A stretch of DNA of 64,000 nt from Streptomyces lichenis (GTDB taxonomy: Bacteria; Actinomycetota; Actinomycetes; Streptomycetales; Streptomycetaceae). A program made the translations under genes and the position numbers. The stretch is from assembly GCF_023218175.1 (NCBI RefSeq), contig NZ_JALPTH010000001.1, forward strand, positions 62,001 to 126,000, in the 5' to 3' direction. The notes under the pieces were generated by a model. That model did no database searches and was not told where the DNA came from. It saw only the letters and a list, made by a program, of their open reading frames with translations. Shown piece by piece: positions 26,327-41,544 of the stretch (its first letter is position 1; the number at the start of each line of letters is the position of its first letter).

Positions 26327-26950
26327 ATGGCGAACACCCGCACCGAGGACGCCCACCACGAGCGCACGGCCTGCCGCCGGCACGGCGCCGTGCTGGAGCG
26401 GGCCATCCTCGAAGCCGCCCTCGCGGAGCTGGCTCGGGTCGGCTGGAACGGCCTGACCATGGAAGGGGTGGCCGCCGCCGCGCGGACCGGCAAGGCGGCC
26501 GTCTATCGCCGCTGGTCAGGCAAGGAGGATCTGGTCGCGGACGCGCTCCGGGCCGCGCTGCCGGCGCTGGACGAGGTCCCCGACCTCGGCGGGGTGCGCG
26601 AGGACCTCCACGCCCTGTGCCGGATGATCCGGGACGCGATGTTCTCCGCGTCGGGCACGGCGCTTCGCTCGGTGCTTCACGAATGCGACGGCGCGGGCGG
26701 CGAACGGTTCCACGGCCTCATCCGAACGGGCGTCATCGATCCCGGAACCCGGCTGATCCGCATGGTGCTGGACCGTGGCCGCGAGCGGGGCGACGTCCGG
26801 GCGGACAGCGGCGACGGGCTGGTCGTGGATGTGCTCCCCGCCCTGCTGATGTACCGCTCGAAGGTGCACGGGAGCGAGTGGCCGGACACGGAGGTCGCGG
26901 AGCTCGTCGACCAGGTGCTGGTGCCGCTGCTGCGCCCCGGCGCCCGCTGA
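26327..26950 (+). CDS. TetR-family transcriptional repressor
   Basis: Repressor of 207 residues with a TetR helix-turn-helix near residues 25-65 (ILEAALAELARVGWNGLTMEGVAAAARTGKAAVYRRW in two parts) and a ligand-binding C-domain. ATG 26327 (MANTRTED) has GGAGAG upstream; the longer frame from 26198 has no such site and crosses the operator. It is divergent from the DHA2 exporter, and the two dyads in between are its likely binding sites, so it probably represses both genes until a drug ligand binds. Confidence 0.9.
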   Translation: MANTRTEDAHHERTACRRHGAVLERAILEAALAELARVGWNGLTMEGVAAAARTGKAAVYRRWSGKEDLVADALRAALPALDEVPDLGGVREDLHALCRMIRDAMFSASGTALRSVLHECDGAGGERFHGLIRTGVIDPGTRLIRMVLDRGRERGDVRADSGDGLVVDVLPALLMYRSKVHGSEWPDTEVAELVDQVLVPLLRPGAR

Positions 26951-32325: not shown

Positions 32326-34002
32326 ATGAGCGAACGACAGGACAGCCCCCAGCCGCACGACCGCCCTCTTCCCCTCCCCGAGCACTCCGAGCCCGCCCTT
32401 CCCACCGACCGCGTCACCGACCCCACCGGAGCAGCCATGCCGCTCGTCCCCGCCGGTTCCTCCGAGTCCTCCGGGCCCGTCGCGCCCCCCGAGCCCGGCG
32501 ACGACCACGGCAAGCGCTCCGACGACCAGTCGTCGGACCACCGGTCCGGCGGGTGGGCGGCCGGCCGACCGGAGTCCCGGCCAGGGGCCGTGGAGCAGAT
32601 CACCCTGCGCGGCCCCGCCGAGCTGGCCGATGCCCTGCCGTACATGCTGGGCTACCACCCGACCGACTCCATCGTGCTGGTCGCGCTCCACGGTGACCGG
32701 GGCAGGTTCGGCGGCCGGGTGCGGCTGGGCATTCCGCGCTCGGCCCGCGAATGGCCCTCCGTCGCCGACCAGCTCGCCGAGGCGCTGGTCGAAGGGGGCG
32801 AGCGGCGCGGCACCCGTCCGGACGGCATCGTGGCGTTCCTCTGCCAGGACCCCGCGGAGGGCGAGTCCGCCCTGCGGGTCATGGAGCGGCTGCGTCCGCT
32901 GGCCCAGCGGCTGCGCACCGCCTGCGGCGCGCTCGACGTGCCGGTGTATGAGGCGCTGTGCGTCTCGGACGGCCGCTATTGGTCCTACTGCTGCCCGGAC
33001 AGCCGCTGCTGCCCGCCCGACGGCACCCCGCTGGTGGCGCCGGGCACCTCGGTGATGGCCGCCGCCGCGACCTACGCGGGCATCCAGGTCCGCGGTTCGC
33101 TACGGGACTTCCAGGCCCGGCTGCGCCCCTGGGACCGGGGCACCCGGGCCGCCGACGAGCAGTTGCGGGCGCTGGACGAGGCGGGGGCGGCCCTGGTGCC
33201 GGCCATCCTGGGCGAACAGGGCCGGGACGGGGTGCGGGAGGACACCCTGCGGCTCGCCGAGGAGCTGATGCGGCGGCTCGCGCAGAACCCGCCCGGCGGC
33301 GACTCCGCCGCCGCCGACACCCACGACGACGGGCTGCTCGGCCACCGGGAGGCGGCCTCGGTCATCCTCGGATTGCAGGACCGGCTGACGCGGGACCGCG
33401 CTGCGGAGTGGATGGAGGGGCCCGGCGCGCCCGCCGCGCTGCGGCTCTGGCGCGCGCTGTCCCGCCGCTGTGTGGGCGCCTACGTCGAGCACTCGGCCGC
33501 CCCGCTGACCCTGGCCGGCTGGGTGTCCTGGTCGACCGGCGACGAGCCGGCCGCCCGGATCGCGCTGGGGCTGGCCTTGGAGGTGGACCCCGAGTACGTC
33601 TTCGCCAGGCTGCTGCACCAGGCGTGCAACGAGAACCTGGACCCCGAGTCGTTGCGCCAGTGCCTTCGGAAGGAGCGCGAGGTGCGGGTGGCGGCGGAGG
33701 AGGGTGCGGTGGCCTCCGCCCGTCCCCCGGAGCCCGGGGCCGTCCGGACCAGGACCAGGACCCGGACCCGGCTTCGGACCCGGGCCGGGGCCGGTGACGG
33801 CGGCGACGGCGGCCGGAGGACCGGTGCGCCGCGCGCTGCCAGGGTCCGGCCGGCGGCGGGAGCTCGGAGGGCTGATGCCTCACGACCGGCCGCCGGTTCG
33901 GCACCGACGAAGGCGGCCCGCACGGTCGGCGGAGTGCCGAGCAGCGGCCTCCGCGCGGCGGGCCGGGGAGAGGAGGGAGATCGTACGGAGAGCCGCACGT
34001 GA
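32326..34002 (+). CDS. DUF4192 family protein
   Basis: Actinobacterial protein of 558 residues with a DUF4192 domain from about residue 90 to 460 (LRGPAELADALPYMLGYHPTDSIVLVAL is its hallmark start, in two parts). Function of the family is unknown. N-terminal 85 residues are disordered and acidic/Pro-rich; the C-terminal 100 residues are Arg/Ala-rich with an RTRTRTRTR run. A CYW-like cluster YWSYCCPDSRCC could bind metal. Start ATG 32326 lacks a clear ribosome site. Divergent from recQ. Confidence 0.85.
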   Translation: MSERQDSPQPHDRPLPLPEHSEPALPTDRVTDPTGAAMPLVPAGSSESSGPVAPPEPGDDHGKRSDDQSSDHRSGGWAAGRPESRPGAVEQITLRGPAELADALPYMLGYHPTDSIVLVALHGDRGRFGGRVRLGIPRSAREWPSVADQLAEALVEGGERRGTRPDGIVAFLCQDPAEGESALRVMERLRPLAQRLRTACGALDVPVYEALCVSDGRYWSYCCPDSRCCPPDGTPLVAPGTSVMAAAATYAGIQVRGSLRDFQARLRPWDRGTRAADEQLRALDEAGAALVPAILGEQGRDGVREDTLRLAEELMRRLAQNPPGGDSAAADTHDDGLLGHREAASVILGLQDRLTRDRAAEWMEGPGAPAALRLWRALSRRCVGAYVEHSAAPLTLAGWVSWSTGDEPAARIALGLALEVDPEYVFARLLHQACNENLDPESLRQCLRKEREVRVAAEEGAVASARPPEPGAVRTRTRTRTRLRTRAGAGDGGDGGRRTGAPRAARVRPAAGARRADASRPAAGSAPTKAARTVGGVPSSGLRAAGRGEEGDRTESRT

Positions 34003-34439
34003 ACCCTGGATGTCGGGGCGCGCTGGACCGGGCGCTGAGCCGACCCCGTCGCCTGGCGGCCGGAGCTGTCGTACGTGGCCGACGCTTCGAACGGCCTGGC
34101 CGCGAACTGGTTCCGTTGCCTGCCGACCTGCCGACCTGCCGACCTGCCGACCTGCCGACCTGCCGACCGCCGCGGGTGGCCGGTTCGGCCGAGTCGGGTC
34201 GGGGCGCGGCCGGTCGGGGCGGGCTGGGTGTGACGGGGCTCGATGAGAGGTGATCAGGGGATGGCGACGGTGGTGGATGGTGACGTAGCTGTCGGAAGGA
34301 GGTGCATGGGCGGTGGCGGGGGGCTCGGCGTGACCGGATGGTCTGCCTGGCCGTTGACCCTGGTGGCGGAGTCGCCTGACCCGTGCCGCCGTACGTCCAG
34401 CGGCTGTCCGGAGCACACAGAAGGCCCTCTCACCCCTCC
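34003..34439. other. Gene-free region with 8-bp repeats
   Basis: A stretch of 437 bp between the DUF4192 gene and the split debranching-like gene. Its only distinct structure is the TGCCGACC tandem array. Reading frames across it have no homologous look. Confidence 0.55.
34121..34168. repeat. Six perfect copies of TGCCGACC
   Basis: An uninterrupted 48-bp microsatellite of an 8-base unit. The 8-base period would shift the reading frame with each copy gained or lost, but no gene clearly spans it. Confidence 0.9.
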
Positions 34440-36554
34440 ATGGACCTCCCTCATCCCGATCCGGCCTCCGATTCGGTTCCTGGTCCGGCACCCGGTCTGT
34501 GGCGCACCCTGCCTCGGCAGGCGTCACCGTGGCCCGGCCGGGGAGCGCCCGGGGCGTCGTCCACTCGGTATGGCGGGCCGCCACCGGTCCACGAGTCGCT
34601 CGCCAGCGTCGCCATGCCCGCCTTCGCCCTCTCCCCGCCTCATGGCCAGCTCACCGGGCACGGTGTCGACGGGGTGTACCACGCGGGTCGACGCGTCCTC
34701 GTCCGGGCACGGCTCCGGGTCGCGGGCCGGGAGCCGGTCACCGTCCAGGCAGGCATGGTGGGAGCGGGTTCGACCCGGTTCATGGCGCTGGTCCAGGCGC
34801 CGGCCGGAGGTGGGCCGGATCCCGCGATCGTGGTGGAGCGGAGCAGAGACGCCGACGGGTCCGAGCGGATCAGCCTGCGCAGCACACTCGACCGGGTGCT
34901 GCGCCTGCCGGTCGAACTCCTCCTCGGCGCCGACCTCGCCGAGTTGGGCACGATCGCGGCGGGGCGCCCCTGTCCCGAGCCGCCCGCCGCGGTCCATGGT
35001 GCGGGGCTTCGCTGGTCGGCTCCGGTCGGCTGGGCCTCCGTCACCGCCGAGCCGGCTCCGGACGACACCCTCGCCTCGGCCGGGGTGCTGCGCTGGCTGC
35101 TCGATCTCGGACCGGGGGAGGAGCGCACCATCGAGCTGCGGGTCCGCTCGTCCCTCCTGCCCCGTGGCGGCCCCGGCCACCTCCATCCCACCGTCGGTGG
35201 TGCGCTCGCGGCCGAGGGAGCGAGCGGTGGTCGCTGCTTCTCCGACGCCCGTGCCGAGGCGGACGATCCGCGGGTGGAGCGGCTGTTGGCGGCGGGCGTC
35301 GCCGACCTGTGAGCCTTGCTGCTGCGTGACCCTGCCCATCCCGGCCGCGCCTTGCTCGCCGCGGGTGTCCCCTGGCGCGCCCGCCCGGTGCCGGCGGAGG
35401 CGCTGCGGGCCGCGCGGATGGCTCTCCCACTGGGCACCGGGGCGGCGGCCGGGACGCTGCGGGCGCTGGCGCGGACCCAGCACACCGCGCCGGGGGAAGG
35501 GGCCGGGTTCATCCCCGGGCCGCTGCGCGACGGCGGGCCCGGGCTGCCTCCCGTATGCACCGGCACCGAAGCCACCCTGGCGTTCCCGGTGGTGCTGGCC
35601 GAGGCCCGCCGCTGGGGGCTGCCCGACGGTGAGCTCGCCGAACTGCTGCCCGCCGCCGAGCGCTGCCTGCGCTGGTTGCGGGCCGCAGCGGACGAGGACG
35701 GTTATGTGCCGGAGCCGGGCTCTGTCCGGGTACTCCGCGCCGAGACGCAGGCGCACGCGCACCGGGCCGCCATGCTCGGCGCCGACCTGCTGGAGGCGTG
35801 CGGCCGCCCGGGCGCGGAGGAGTGGCGGTCCTGGGCCGGCCGGCTGCCCACCCGGTTCCGCGCCGACTTCTGGATCGACGACCGGGGCGGCGGCCGGCCG
35901 GTGGCCGTACGCACCCCGGGCGGACCGCGCCCGCACCTCGGCGGTGCCGCCGCCCATCTGCTGGATACCGGCCTCGGCGACGGCGTGCGACCGGCGTGCG
36001 GACTGCTCGACCCGGTCCGCACCGGGCGGCTCGCCCGGCTGCTCGGCAGCCCCGCCCTGGACTCCGGCTGGGGACTGCGGGGGCTCGGCGAGGTTGAGCC
36101 GGGCTTCAACCCGTTCGGCCACCGCACCGGTGCGGTACGGGTGTACGAGACGGCCGTCGCCGTCGCGGGGCTCGCGGCGAGCGGTCACGAGCAGGAGGCG
36201 GCCGCCCTGCTCGACGGCCTGGTGCGGGCCGCGGAGGCCTTCGCGTACCGGCTGCCGGAGATGTACGGCGGGGGCCGGCACACGGCGGGCGGCGCCCCGG
36301 TGCCGCATCCGGCCGCCTGCCGCCCCTCCGCCCTCTCCGCGGCCTCGGCCGTGCACCTGCTCACCACGGCTGCGGGCATCCGCCCGGACGTACCGGCGGG
36401 GCTCCTCGCGGTACGGCCGCTGCGCTCCGCGCCCCTGGGCGCGTTCCGGCTCTCCGGGCTCGCCGTCGCGGGGGAGCCCCTCGCCGTCCGGGTCGGCGGG
36501 ATCGGGCTGGGGCTGGTCGAGGCCGCCGCCCCGGGCCTCCGGCTCGGCGGCTGA
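34440..36554 (+). pseudogene. Glycogen debranching-like enzyme (amylo-alpha-1,6-glucosidase family), interrupted by an in-frame TGA
   Basis: A 705-codon frame from ATG 34440 encodes an N-terminal debranching domain (VHESLASVAMPAFALSPPHGQ, then GQLTGHGVDGVY) and a C-terminal alpha/alpha-toroid glucosidase-like region with GTEATLAFPVVLAEAR and EVEPGFNPFGHRTGAVRVYET. At 35310-35312 a TGA splits it. Both halves are in the same frame, and the next codons (GCC TTG CTG CTG CGT) continue the family pattern, where an Arg codon (CGA) is expected. The second half has only a TTG at 35316 with no ribosome site. It may be a recent nonsense mutation, a sequencing error, or readthrough. Confidence 0.8.
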
Positions 36555-36776: not shown

Positions 36777-37874
36777 ATGACTGTTCTGAGCGACAGGGCC
36801 CTGGGCCGCGCGACACTCGCCCGGCAACTGCTGCTCGACCCGGCCGACATGCCTGTCGAGGACGCTGTTTCCCACCTCGGCGGTCTGCAGGCGCAGGAGC
36901 CTCAGGAGCCATTCGTCGGACTCTGGTCGAGGCTGCGCGCCTTCGACCCCTCGCACCTGTCCGATGCACTGGCCGGACGGCGTGTGGTGCGGACCCATCT
37001 CATGCGCCGCACCGTCCACCTCGTCACCGCCGAGGACGCCCTGGGCTGGCGGTCCCGCCATGACGCCATGCTGCGCCAGCGGGTCCTGGGGACGTACCGC
37101 CGCGAACTCGCCGGGGTCGATCTGGACGAACTCGCCGCGGCGGGGCGGGCGGTGATGGCCGACGCCGAGCCCCGCACCATGGGCGAGCTGGTGCGGGCCG
37201 TGGAAGGGCGGTGGCCGGCGGGGCGGCGGGCGCTGGGCGAGATGCTGGTCGCCGCCCTGCTCCCCGTCGCGCAGATCCCGCCCCGTGGGCTGTGGCGCAC
37301 CAAGGCCGGAGTGCGCAATGTCCTGCTCTCCGCCTGGCTCGGCCGCGAGATCGCCCCGCCCGCCCCGGACGGCTCCGACCCGGTCGGCCAGACCCTGGTG
37401 AGGCGCTACCTCGCCGCGTACGGCCCCGCCACCTCGGCCGACCTCCGGGCCTGGTGCGGCCTGGCCGGGCTGCCCGCCGCGGTGGCCGCCGTGCGCCCGG
37501 AGCTGGTCGGCTTCCGCGACGAGCACGGGAGGGAACTGCTGGATCTGCCCGACGCCCCGCGGCCCGGCCCCGACGCGCCTGCCCCGTTGCGGTTCCTGCC
37601 GGCCTTCGACAGCGCGATCCTCGGCTACCGGTATCGCGGCAGGATCATCGACGACGCCCACCGCGGTCTGTCGGTCGCCGGTGAGCGCGTCGTCCTGGTC
37701 GACGGGCGGGTCGCCGCGACCTGGGACGTCGGCCGGGACGCCACCGTCACCGTCACCCCGCTGCGCCGCCTCACCCGGGCCGAGCGCTCCGAGAGCGCCG
37801 AACAGGGGCAGGCGCTGGCCTCGTTCCTCTCGGACGGGGAGAGTGATCGCGTCGAGATCACCGCACCGGACTGA
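36777..37874 (+). CDS. AlkZ-like winged-helix DNA glycosylase family protein (HTH_42)
   Basis: Protein of 365 residues of the HTH_42/DUF1006 superfamily, whose studied members AlkZ and YcaQ are DNA glycosylases for bulky adducts and interstrand crosslinks. The QxQ catalytic motif is visible as Q38-A-Q40 in HLGGLQAQEP, then VVRTHLMRRTVHLV, a typical second signature. Other blocks: RRYLAAYGPATSADL and LPAFDSAILGYR. ATG 36777 has a GGAGATGGTGAG upstream. No antibiotic cluster is nearby, so a self-resistance role like that of azinomycin AlkZ is not supported. Actual activity is inferred from family only. Confidence 0.82.
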   Translation: MTVLSDRALGRATLARQLLLDPADMPVEDAVSHLGGLQAQEPQEPFVGLWSRLRAFDPSHLSDALAGRRVVRTHLMRRTVHLVTAEDALGWRSRHDAMLRQRVLGTYRRELAGVDLDELAAAGRAVMADAEPRTMGELVRAVEGRWPAGRRALGEMLVAALLPVAQIPPRGLWRTKAGVRNVLLSAWLGREIAPPAPDGSDPVGQTLVRRYLAAYGPATSADLRAWCGLAGLPAAVAAVRPELVGFRDEHGRELLDLPDAPRPGPDAPAPLRFLPAFDSAILGYRYRGRIIDDAHRGLSVAGERVVLVDGRVAATWDVGRDATVTVTPLRRLTRAERSESAEQGQALASFLSDGESDRVEITAPD

Positions 37875-37901
37875 CCGTGCGGGGAGGGAGGAAGGAGGGA
37901 C

Positions 37902-38073
37902 GTGGCCGGCGGAACTGTCCGGCGAGGAGGTCACCGGGCAGGCCCTGGCCGATCTTCTGGCCGACCCGGCCGGCTGGGCGTACCAGGAGGAGCCGACCCG
38001 CTGGATCTGCGTGGCCTCCGGCGACGGTGGCATCCAGGAGCTGGAGGAAGGCATGTGCCACCAGGAGCGGTGA
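37902..38073 (+). pseudogene. Small gene, apparently frameshifted
   Basis: A strong GGAGGGAGGAAGGAGGG site precedes GTG 37902. The convincing protein-like frame begins one base off: AELSGEEVTGQALADLLADP, then WAYQEEPTRWICVASGDGG, ending CHQER at 38073. Removing one G around 37909-37912 would join them as MAGELSGEEV. It may be a frameshift, a sequencing error, or a non-AUG start. I do not recognise the protein. About 56 residues. Confidence 0.4.
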
Positions 38074-38127
38074 CCCTGGCGGGCCCTCGGCAGGCCGTGG
38101 CGGTGGCGGTGCGGCGAGGGCGACTGC

Positions 38128-40104
38128 TCATGCTGTGGGCTTGGTGGGTCGGGGCCAGGCGGACTCGCGTAGCAGGCGCAGGCCGTTGAGGCCGACGATG
38201 ACGGTGGAGCCCTCATGGCCGGCGACCCCCAGGGGCAGGGGCAGGGCGCCGATCAGGTCCCAGGCCACCAGGACGGCGATGAACGCGCCGGCGAGGGCCA
38301 GGTTCCGGATGACGAAGCGGCGTGCGGTGCGGGAGAGCTGCACGATCGAGGGGATGGCGGCGAGTTCGTCGCGCACGACCACGGCGTCGGCGGTCTCCAG
38401 GGCGAGGTCGGAGCCGGCCTTGCCCATCGCGATCCCGGAGTGGGCGGCGGCCAGGGCGGGGGCGTCGTTGACGCCGTCGCCGACCACCAGCACCCGGCGT
38501 CCCTGGGCTTCCCACTCCTGGACGGCCGCCACCTTGTCCTGGGGCAGCAGTCCGGCGCGGACGTCGGTGATGCCGACCTCGGCGGCCAGGTGCCGGGCGG
38601 CGCGTTCGTTGTCGCCGGTCAGCAGGATGGGCGTGCGACCGGTCAGCCGGGTGAGGGCGGCGACGGTGGCCGCCGCGTCCGGTCGCAGCCGGTCGGCGAT
38701 CCCGAGCACGCCCACCGGTTCCTGGTCGCGCAGGACGGCGACGGCGGTCCGTCCGGCCTCTTCCAGCTCGGCCACCACGGCTCGCCCGGGCTGGTGGCCG
38801 GCGGCGTCCAGGAGCCGGGCGGGGGCGCCGACCGTGACGGTGCGGCCGTCGACGGTGGCGGTGACGCCCCGGCCCGGTGCGGAGGTGAAGTCCTCGACGC
38901 CGGTCAGCGGCAGGCCGCGTTCGCGGGCGGCGGCGACCACGGCACGCGCGAGCGGGTGTTCGCTGGGGTGCTCGGCGGATGCCGCCAGCATCAGCAGGCT
39001 GTCCTGGTCCAGGCCGCTGCCGGGCAGCGGGCGCAGGTCGGTGACGCGGGGGGTGCCCTCGGTAAGGGTGCCGGTCTTGTCCAGGGCGACGGTGTCGATC
39101 CGGCCGAGGCGCTCCATGACGACGGCGGACTTGGCGAGGACGCCGTGGCGGCCGGCGTTGGCGATGGCGGACAGCAGCGGCGGCATGGTGGACAGGACGA
39201 CCGCGCACGGCGAGGCCACGATCATGAACGTCATGGCTCGTAGCAGGGCGGCGGAGAGGGCGTCGCCGAAGGCGAGCGGGATCGCGAAGACAGCGAGGGT
39301 CGCGGCCACCATGCCGATCGAGTAGCGCTGTTCGATCTTCTCGATGAACAGCTGGGTGGGGGCCTTGGTCTCGGAGGCTTCCTCGACCATCCTCACGATC
39401 CGGGCGATCACCGAGTCCGACGGGTCGCGCTCGACCTGGACCCGCAGGGCGCCGGTGCCGTTGACGGTGCCGGCGAACACCCCGTCACCGACCTGCTTGG
39501 CCACCGGCAGCGGCTCGCCGGTGATGGTGGCCTGGTCGACGTCACTGGCCCCGTCGATGACCCGGCCGTCCGCGCCGACCCGTTCGCCGGGCCGCACCAG
39601 GATCGTGTTCCCGACCGCCAGGCGCTCCGTCTCGACCGTCTCCTCGGTGCCGTCGGGCAGCAGCCGGGTGGCGGTGGCCGGGGCGAGGTCGAGCAGACCA
39701 CGCACGGAGTCGGCGGTCCGCGCGGTGGCGACGGCCTCCAGGGCACCGGAGGTGGCGAAGATGACGATCAGCAGCGCGCCGTCGAGGACCTGTCCGATCG
39801 CGGCGGCTCCCAGGGCCGCGACGACCATCAGCAGGTCCACGTCCAAGGTCTTGTCCCTGAGGGCCTTCAGCCCCTCCCATCCGGGCTCCCAGCCGCCGGT
39901 GGCACAGGTGGCGGCGAACAGCGTTCCCCACAGCCATGCCGGGCCGCCCAGCAGGTGTACGGGCAGGCCGGTCAGGAACAGCACCAGGGCCGCGACCGCC
40001 CAGCGGGCCTCCGGCAGCGCCAGCAGCCGCGTCCGGCGGCGGATGGCCGAGGAGCGGTGCGCGGCGACGGGCGGCGCGGGCCGCTGATCGAGGACGGAGG
40101 GCAT
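38128..40104 (-). CDS. P1B-4-type metal-exporting ATPase (CtpD/NmtA-like)
   Basis: Membrane ATPase of 658 residues exporting transition metals. Key features: phosphorylation motif DKTGTLTEG (Asp342), SPC motif at 298-300 in the metal-binding helix instead of the CPC of Cu/Zn/Cd pumps, TITGEPLPV, GDGVNDAPAL, and HEGST at about 630 in the last helices. SPC with HEG(G/S)T defines the P1B-4 group (Co, Ni, Fe). There is no cytoplasmic N-terminal metal domain. Divergent from an NmtR-like Ni/Co sensor with an operator between, so Co/Ni (possibly Fe) efflux is most likely. Confidence 0.92.
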   Translation of the reverse strand: MPSVLDQRPAPPVAAHRSSAIRRRTRLLALPEARWAVAALVLFLTGLPVHLLGGPAWLWGTLFAATCATGGWEPGWEGLKALRDKTLDVDLLMVVAALGAAAIGQVLDGALLIVIFATSGALEAVATARTADSVRGLLDLAPATATRLLPDGTEETVETERLAVGNTILVRPGERVGADGRVIDGASDVDQATITGEPLPVAKQVGDGVFAGTVNGTGALRVQVERDPSDSVIARIVRMVEEASETKAPTQLFIEKIEQRYSIGMVAATLAVFAIPLAFGDALSAALLRAMTFMIVASPCAVVLSTMPPLLSAIANAGRHGVLAKSAVVMERLGRIDTVALDKTGTLTEGTPRVTDLRPLPGSGLDQDSLLMLAASAEHPSEHPLARAVVAAARERGLPLTGVEDFTSAPGRGVTATVDGRTVTVGAPARLLDAAGHQPGRAVVAELEEAGRTAVAVLRDQEPVGVLGIADRLRPDAAATVAALTRLTGRTPILLTGDNERAARHLAAEVGITDVRAGLLPQDKVAAVQEWEAQGRRVLVVGDGVNDAPALAAAHSGIAMGKAGSDLALETADAVVVRDELAAIPSIVQLSRTARRFVIRNLALAGAFIAVLVAWDLIGALPLPLGVAGHEGSTVIVGLNGLRLLRESAWPRPTKPTA

Positions 40105-40179
40105 GACAGAACCGACCCTTCACGGGCGAAACGGAACGACCCCGCACGGTCGAACCGGGGTAATGTCATCACCATACAC

Positions 40180-40207
40180 GAACACATGAACAGGTCTTCA
40201 TGTGTTC
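40180..40207. promoter_or_regulatory. ArsR/NmtR operator
   Basis: A perfect 11-bp inverted repeat, GAACACATGAA-CAGGTC-TTCATGTGTTC, lies between the ATPase and the sensor, in an AT-rich segment. It covers the -35 zone of the sensor gene. Confidence 0.85.
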
Positions 40208-40211
40208 TCGG

Positions 40212-40217
40212 TATGAT
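40212..40217 (+). promoter_or_regulatory. -10 element TATGAT of the NmtR-like gene (leaderless)
   Basis: TATGAT ends 7 bases before ATG 40225, so the transcript should start at or next to the start codon. The operator lies directly upstream. Confidence 0.65.
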
Positions 40218-40224
40218 GAGGTCC

Positions 40225-40623
40225 ATGGGTCACGGAACCGGCACCGCCAGCAGCGCCACCACCCGCGAGCGCCTTGACGCGGTGGGCACCGCCGATGTCG
40301 CCGCCACCCTCCAGGCTCTGTCCACCCCGTCCCGGCTCTACATCCTGGCCCGCCTGCAGGAGGGGCCCTGCTCGGTGAGCGAGCTGGCCGACGCGGTCGG
40401 TATGGAAGCCTCCGCCTGCTCCCACCAGCTGCGCCTGCTGCGCAACCTCGGTCTGGTCACCGGCGAACGCCACGGGCGGTCCATCGTCTACGCCCTGTAC
40501 GACAACCATGTCGCCGAGCTCCTCGACCAGGCCCTCTACCACGTCGAACACTTGCGCCTCGGCGCCCATGACGCCCCCGTCGCCGCCGAGCACGGGGCCT
40601 CGAAGCAGCTGCGGTCGACGTGA
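40225..40623 (+). CDS. nmtR: NmtR-like ArsR-family Ni/Co-responsive repressor
   Basis: Winged-helix metal sensor of 132 residues. It begins MGHGTG, and Gly2-His3 are part of the Ni site in mycobacterial NmtR. The alpha-5 ligands are also conserved: Asp93 and His95 (LYDNHVA), His106 and His109 (YHVEH). The recognition helix is SACSHQLRLLRNLGLV. ATG 40225 is chosen over the earlier in-frame ATG at 40189 because of this N-terminal motif and a -10 hexamer 7 bases upstream. It should repress itself and the divergent P1B-4 ATPase, releasing DNA when Ni(II) or Co(II) binds. Confidence 0.9.
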   Translation: MGHGTGTASSATTRERLDAVGTADVAATLQALSTPSRLYILARLQEGPCSVSELADAVGMEASACSHQLRLLRNLGLVTGERHGRSIVYALYDNHVAELLDQALYHVEHLRLGAHDAPVAAEHGASKQLRST

Positions 40624-40744: not shown

Positions 40745-40769
40745 TTATCGTCAGGAAGACGACTATGAT
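40745..40769 (+). promoter_or_regulatory. Promoter with dyad operator of the NUDIX regulator (leaderless)
   Basis: TTATCGTC-AGGAA-GACGACTA is a dyad with 6 of 8 matching positions. It overlaps a TATGAT -10 at 40764-40769, which lies 7 bases before ATG 40777. This would fit autorepression by the encoded NrtR-like protein. Confidence 0.5.
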
Positions 40770-40776
40770 GCGCGGC

Positions 40777-41544
40777 ATGTCGCCCTACGACCCCTCGGCC
40801 TTTCCGCCCTTCGCCGTCACCGTCGACCTCGTGGTGCTCACCGTGCGCCGCCACGCGCTGTGCGCGCTCGTCGTGCGGCGCGGGGAGCAGCCGTTCCAAG
40901 GGCGTTGGGCGCTGCCGGGCGGCTTCGTACGGGAGGACGAGGACCTCGGCGCCGCGGCCCGCCGGGAACTCGCCGAGGAGACCGGGTTGTGCGCCCATGA
41001 CGCGGGTACGCCTCCGGCGGAGACGAGCGGCGCCCACCTCGAACAGCTCGCCACCTACGGCGCCCCGGGCCGCGACCCCCGGATGCGGGTGGTCAGCGTC
41101 GCCCATCTCGCCCTGGCGCCCGATCTTCCCGCGCCCCGGCCGGGTGGCGATGCCAACAGCGCGCGCTGGGCGCCGGTGGAGGAACTCCTCGAACCGGAGG
41201 GAGCCCCGCCGCACTCGGACGAGCAGCAGACCCCGCTCGCCTTCGACCACGGCCGGATCCTCGCCGATGGTGTGGAGCGCGCCCGGTCGAAGATCGAGTA
41301 CTCCTCGCTGGCCACCGCCTTCTGCCCGCCCGAGTTCACCGTGGGTGAGCTGCGCCGGGTGTACGAGGGCGTCTGGGGCGTGGCGCTGGATCCGCGCAAC
41401 TTCCACCGCAAGGTGACCGGCACCCCGGGCTTCCTGGTGCCGTCCGGCGGGACCACGACCCGCCAAGGCGGCCGCCCCGCCCAGCTGTTCCGGGCCGGCG
41501 GCGCCACCCTGCTCAATCCGCCGATGCTGCGTCCCGAGGTCTGA
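40777..41544 (+). CDS. NrtR-like NUDIX-domain transcriptional regulator
   Basis: Fusion of a NUDIX domain (residues about 15-155) and a C-terminal winged helix (about 160-240), the architecture of NrtR, the ADP-ribose-responsive repressor of NAD metabolism. The NUDIX box is partly kept: GGFVREDEDLGAAARRELAEETGL, in which the REx2E2xG-type acidic residues (RELAEE) are present. The winged helix includes FTVGELRRVYEGVWG and FHRKV. ATG 40777 is placed 7 bases after a TATGAT element; nearby ATGs at 40765 and 40768 are alternatives. Regulon unknown; no NAD gene is next to it. Confidence 0.87.
   Translation: MSPYDPSAFPPFAVTVDLVVLTVRRHALCALVVRRGEQPFQGRWALPGGFVREDEDLGAAARRELAEETGLCAHDAGTPPAETSGAHLEQLATYGAPGRDPRMRVVSVAHLALAPDLPAPRPGGDANSARWAPVEELLEPEGAPPHSDEQQTPLAFDHGRILADGVERARSKIEYSSLATAFCPPEFTVGELRRVYEGVWGVALDPRNFHRKVTGTPGFLVPSGGTTTRQGGRPAQLFRAGGATLLNPPMLRPEV

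What the first reader, a model, noticed from the sequence alone, without database searches (positions are those of the whole stretch)
35295..35330. Single in-frame TGA splits a debranching-type enzyme
Both halves share one frame and keep family features, so one base change (CGA to TGA) explains the stop. The second half has no usable start. This is a nonsense mutation, an error, or a readthrough site.
Basis: partly seen in the sequence, partly recalled or inferred. Interest (0 to 1): 0.55.

Follow-up and report, generated by a model that had tools for sequence, protein, structure and literature searches.

The report
Lone stop codon breaks debranching-like gene
In one soil bacterium a sugar-enzyme-like gene that is whole in its relatives carries a single stop signal in its middle, most likely an ordinary recent gene-breaking mutation rather than a special decoding trick.

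Summary
In detail: TGA at 35310-35312 interrupts one frame (about 34440-36554), with a GDE_N_bis domain before it and the helical glycosidase-like half after it. The gene sits in its ancestral place between a DUF4192 gene and an NrtR-like NUDIX gene. None of 57 aligned close relatives has a stop; nor do the 149 other matches printed for 295 congeneric genomes. Relatives carry mostly Arg or Gln there. There is no frameshift, the start region is intact, and both halves show dN/dS below 1. The window's copy is the longest branch of the family, but the six neighbouring genes tested are also faster in this lineage. No tRNA-Sec reaches its cut-off. Best reading: a recent species- or strain-level nonsense mutation in a dispensable gene. 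Sequence error, and restart at a TTG 3 nt past the stop, are not excluded; programmed readthrough is unlikely. 'Debranching enzyme' is doubtful: in 58 of 58 members the GRD triplet, invariant in 12 of 12 canonical relatives, has become [PTAG]A[ED], and W.HD has changed too. That rewritten subfamily is more interesting than the stop. Overall interest is low.

The parts
34440..36554 (+). Interrupted gene as a whole: GDE_N_bis plus helical glycosidase-like half (ATG 34440 preferred start; GTG 34383 also possible)
   Evidence: ATG and leader DNA resemble those of L059-L061
34440..35312 (+). First open part, ends at the TGA; contains GDE_N_bis
35310..35312 (+). In-frame TGA
   Evidence: 0 of 57 aligned relatives have a stop
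35316..35318 (+). TTG, a possible restart codon 3 nt after the stop; 0 of 57 relatives have TTG in this column
35313..36554 (+). Second open part in the same frame, glycosidase-like helical half
   Evidence: PDB 7vma match of the family profile
35385..35405 (+). Rewritten motif PVPAEAL, where canonical relatives have LFGRDSL
36132..36155 (+). Rewritten motif AVRVYETA, where canonical relatives have S[VI]W[TP]HDTA
36249..36272 (+). RLPE motif, kept in this copy
   Evidence: 53 of 58 E, 5 of 58 D
32605..33666 (+). Conserved stretch of the upstream DUF4192-type neighbour (family name recalled, not searched here)
   Evidence: synteny
36777..40623 (.). Block of AlkZ-like gene (+), cadmium-family P-type ATPase (-) and ArsR/SmtB regulator (+), absent between the two neighbours in 10 of 10 relatives' stretches
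40768..41544 (+). NrtR-like NUDIX gene, next conserved neighbour downstream

Best explanation
A recent nonsense mutation, private to this species or strain as far as sampled, has put a TGA in the middle of a non-essential, Streptomyces-type GDE_N_bis protein gene. Translation would stop after about 290 residues, at the start of the helical half, and the truncated product is probably useless. Shown: the stop, its absence from the relatives examined, the otherwise intact frame, start and location. Inferred: that the DNA base is real, that it is recent, and that the product is non-functional.
For: Only this copy has a stop among 58 aligned members and among 150 printed matches in a 295-genome search. 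Frame, length and start are otherwise kept. On the window's branch dN/dS is about 0.4-0.6 (first part) and 0.3-0.4 (second part), ratios taken. The window branch of this gene exceeds its sister about 1.7-2.4-fold in dN; the six neighbouring genes give about 1.1-2.9-fold, so no extra decay specific to this gene is evident. The gene is dispensable in the genus: a match at E <= 1e-100 in 184 of 295 genomes. It is single copy here, and two GH13 GlgX-type debranching genes over the curated cut-off remain.
Against: No reads and no second strain of the species were available. The nearest species have CGG/CGT/CGG, so more than one change is needed from those codons. The window copy is the longest branch of the family (0.51; next 0.35), departs at 7 columns invariant in the other 57 (rank 1 of 58; next 6 and 5) and is the most divergent from consensus in the first part, which could mean relaxation began before the stop, so 'recent' is not secure.
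Confidence: 0.62

Rival explanations
1. The TGA is a sequencing or assembly error and the gene is intact in the organism.
For: Otherwise undamaged gene with codon bias and dN/dS below 1 in both halves; draft assembly of 67 contigs.
Against: Neighbouring sequence has no homopolymer at the site. In-frame stops of this kind are rare in the sample: of 344 kb examined, 11 candidate sites, 2 of them (this one and L074:3335) without ATG/GTG within 20 codons, so the assembly is not riddled with errors. A single wrong base cannot turn the nearest species' codons into TGA.
Confidence: 0.18
2. The gene has been split into two working proteins: ribosomes stop at TGA and restart at TTG 35316, making a beta-domain protein and a helical-domain protein that could associate.
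For: TTG lies 3 nt beyond the stop, a place where 0 of 57 relatives have TTG (CTN in 55, ATG in 2); TTG is rare for Leu in the family (163 of 4764, 3.4%) and 5 of 84 in this copy. The stop lies between the end of the GDE_N_bis match and the helical half. The second half keeps dN/dS below 1.
Against: A chance TTG at one given Leu codon has odds of about 6% in this copy, and other start codons or places would have been noticed too. No Shine-Dalgarno-like run is seen. Constraint on the second half is equally explained by a recent stop. The restart would begin inside a predicted helix (low confidence).
Confidence: 0.12
3. Programmed or efficient readthrough (including selenocysteine or suppression) makes the full protein.
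For: TGA is the leakiest stop according to passages in PMC5289835; both halves look constrained.
Against: Stop not conserved. Column is mostly Arg or Gln; Cys in 1 of 57. tRNA-Sec: no match over the 47-bit cut-off; best 44.1 bits is read by ARAGORN as tRNA-Ser. RNA after the stop folds no better than shuffles (z 0.99). Suppressor tRNAs were not searched genome-wide.
Confidence: 0.05

Closest known systems
Nonsense (single-stop) pseudogenes of bacterial genomes
   Same: One in-frame stop in an otherwise aligned orthologue, seen in one genome among those examined.
   Different: No further lesions found; product and expression untested; real base not confirmed.
Archaeal-type glycogen debranching enzyme, PDB 7vma (amylo-alpha-1,6-glucosidase, putative)
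   Same: Family profile matches over both halves, E 2e-27; RLPE kept.
   Different: 7vma has FGRD where this family has [PTAG]A[ED].
Pfam GDE_N_bis proteins with canonical LFGRDS motif in the same order or class
   Same: Same domain order, 29-41% identity of 12 fetched relatives to L002.
   Different: Window family replaces GRD and W.HD motifs in 58 of 58 and, at the Asp of HD, 57 of 58 rows.
GH13 GlgX debranching enzyme
   Same: Proposed activity only.
   Different: Different family; two GlgX-type loci over cut-off exist elsewhere in this genome.

Membership tests
GDE_N_bis domain proteins (PF14742) | Match to PF14742 over its curated cut-off | tested here: met
   75.2 bits against 22.1
Active glycogen debranching enzyme / amylo-alpha-1,6-glucosidase of this fold | FGRD motif with Asp (catalytic role recalled, not from a call) | tested here: not met
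   12 of 12 canonical relatives have GRD; 0 of 58 family rows do; acid kept as E in 51 and D in 7
Active glycogen debranching enzyme / amylo-alpha-1,6-glucosidase of this fold | RLPE motif Glu (catalytic role recalled) | tested here: met
   E in the window; 53 of 58 E, 5 of 58 D
Active glycogen debranching enzyme / amylo-alpha-1,6-glucosidase of this fold | Hydrolysis of alpha-1,6 links | not testable with these tools
   needs an assay
Nonsense pseudogene | Internal stop absent from orthologues | tested here: met
   0 of 57 relatives with stop; 149 of 149 other printed matches none
Nonsense pseudogene | Decay of constraint beyond that of its neighbours | tested here: inconclusive
   faster branch, but six neighbours are faster too; most private changes at invariant columns
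Programmed stop readthrough | Stop conserved among relatives | tested here: not met
Selenoprotein | tRNA-Sec in the genome | tested here: not met
   0 matches over cut-off in own genome; candidates are other tRNAs

The most novel reading that the evidence does not exclude
The gene belongs to a genus-wide family whose active-site motifs have been rewritten (possible pseudoenzyme or new specificity), and in this species it has undergone fission into two separately translated domains by a TGA..TTG stop-restart pair.
Probability: 0.1. Interest if true: 0.45.

Novelty: new member of a known kind. Interest (0 to 1): 0.15.

Why it matters
As a stop codon it matters little: it is one more gene-breaking change in a dispensable bacterial gene, and a caution against annotating the two pieces as separate enzymes. 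The by-product is more useful: relatives annotated as glycogen debranching proteins in this genus form a family with altered catalytic motifs, conserved beside an NrtR-like regulator, whose activity should not be taken for granted.

Tried and rejected
Selenocysteine: rejected. RNA readthrough signal: no structure beyond shuffles. Compensated frameshift at the odd 'PWRARPVPAEAL' stretch, suspected at first as decay: rejected, because the altered motif is family-wide. Rapid decay specific to this gene: not supported against neighbours, though searches show it is the most diverged copy. Structure model: mean pLDDT 45.7, pTM 0.40, from 7 sequences, too poor for a fold search, so none was run; it is used only to say that the stop column falls in a predicted helix. 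Background scan: my first thresholds gave 4 sites and did not flag this TGA; I then loosened them after seeing its scores, so that count is post hoc. Of its 11 sites, the second one lacking nearby ATG/GTG (L074:3335) gave no Pfam family on either 100-residue side. Distant, low-scoring matches (about 30-45% identity, paralogues) include many rows flagged with stops; two of those genomes that I fetched (G070, G065) gave uninterrupted 736- and 725-residue frames, and the others were not examined. Promoter/terminator scan: nothing found. Papers: and one search gave nothing on the catalytic residues of 7vma; for PMC11046441 and PMC5289835 I saw passages only; PMC9530166 only as a listing with the start of its abstract.

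Full report
What is there. The TGA is at 35310-35312. It joins two open parts of one frame, 34383-35312 and 35316-36554, and is the only internal stop when the frame is read on. The first part carries GDE_N_bis (E 7.4e-21, over cut-off), the second a weak MGH1-like glycoside hydrolase match under its cut-off. No NCBIfam model matched either part at E <= 0.1. A profile of seven members, the window's copy among them, matches one solved structure, 7vma, a putative archaeal-type glycogen debranching enzyme, across both halves.

Is it chance? No. The full frame aligns with intact relatives at up to 69% identity. In the own genome it is the only match to itself and the only GDE_N_bis match. I aligned 57 relatives: 29, 6, and 22. 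They are the best-scoring ones fetched, so this is a sample of close relatives. Stops: 0 of 57; the column holds Arg in 30 (CGG 20, CGC 5, CGT 3, CGA 1, AGA 1), Gln 20, Gly 4, and His, Glu, Cys one each. In the 295-genome genus search, 184 genomes had a match at E <= 1e-100; 150 matches were printed, the window's own and 149 others, all 149 without stops; 34 were not printed.

Place. In 10 of 10 stretches of relatives the gene lies between the RecQ-like and DUF4192-type genes on one side and an NrtR-like NUDIX gene on the other, with 106-143 bases between the matched stretches of the last two. In the window that gap is 4.2 kb and holds an AlkZ-like gene, a cadmium-family P-type ATPase and an ArsR/SmtB regulator. 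So the window gene is the orthologue in its ancestral place, with a block arrived downstream. Its start region (ATG 34440 and the leader before it) resembles those of the three nearest species. The genus is taken to be Streptomyces from the named loci and their synteny (inference).

How old is the damage? Three-point branch estimates against G006, G289 and G249, with G153 as outgroup, give the window dN 0.193-0.214 in the first part against 0.088-0.114 for the sister, and 0.143-0.147 against 0.066-0.075 in the second. All six neighbouring stretches tested also have the longer window branch (ratio about 1.1 to 2.9; one of them, 26327-26938, against one sister only). dS is near 0.7-1.0, so near saturation. 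The ratios dN/dS on the window branch remain under 1 in both parts. Against a purely recent event: the window has the longest end branch of the family (0.51, next 0.35), 7 private changes at columns invariant in the other 57 (next 6 and 5), and the first rank in divergence from consensus in the first part, second in the second part. I take the stop as recent but cannot show it.

Mechanism. Most likely, translation simply ends at the TGA. Restart is possible in principle: TTG at 35316 follows the stop by three bases and is absent from that column in 57 of 57 relatives. The odds of a TTG at a Leu codon in this copy are 5 in 84, so this is a hint and no more. Readthrough has no support: no conservation, no tRNA-Sec over cut-off, no RNA structure beyond shuffles. 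Genome-wide suppressor tRNAs were not searched. Loss would be tolerable: the gene has no E <= 1e-100 match in 111 of 295 congeneric genomes, and this genome keeps two GlgX-type loci over cut-off.

What the protein is. Compared with 12 relatives of about 29-41% identity, all 58 members have lost the GRD triplet: Arg became Ala in 58 of 58, Asp became Glu in 51 and stayed Asp in 7, Gly is mostly Pro or Thr (Gly in 1). W of W.HDTA became Arg in 57 and His in 1; its Asp became Glu in 56, stayed Asp in 1 and is Ala in 1. RLPE keeps Glu in 53 and has Asp in 5. In the tree of 58 members and 5 canonical relatives the members are separated by a fully supported branch. That the Asp and Glu are catalytic in this fold is recalled, not taken from a call. 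Either the family has a changed reaction, or it binds glucans without cutting them. This is a property of the family, not of the window's copy.

Verdict. Observation confirmed; interpretation partly supported; an ordinary interrupted gene in a mildly interesting family.

Noticed in passing
35385-35405 and 36132-36155, and 57 relatives: Genus-wide GDE_N_bis subfamily with rewritten catalytic motifs (GRD to [PTAG]A[ED]; W.HD to R..E in most), possibly a pseudoenzyme family.
   Followed up: partly
36777-40623: AlkZ-like gene, cadmium-family P-type ATPase and ArsR/SmtB regulator form a block missing between the same neighbours in 10 of 10 relatives' stretches.
   Followed up: partly
34120-34167: Six perfect copies of the 8-base unit ctgccgac just upstream of the gene (read).
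   Followed up: no
L074:3335: Another in-frame TGA with coding-like sequence on both sides and no ATG/GTG within 20 codons; no Pfam family on either 100-residue side.
   Followed up: partly
L064:15785 and 16184 (minus strand): Two TAG codons with coding-like sequence in the same frame on both sides.
   Followed up: no
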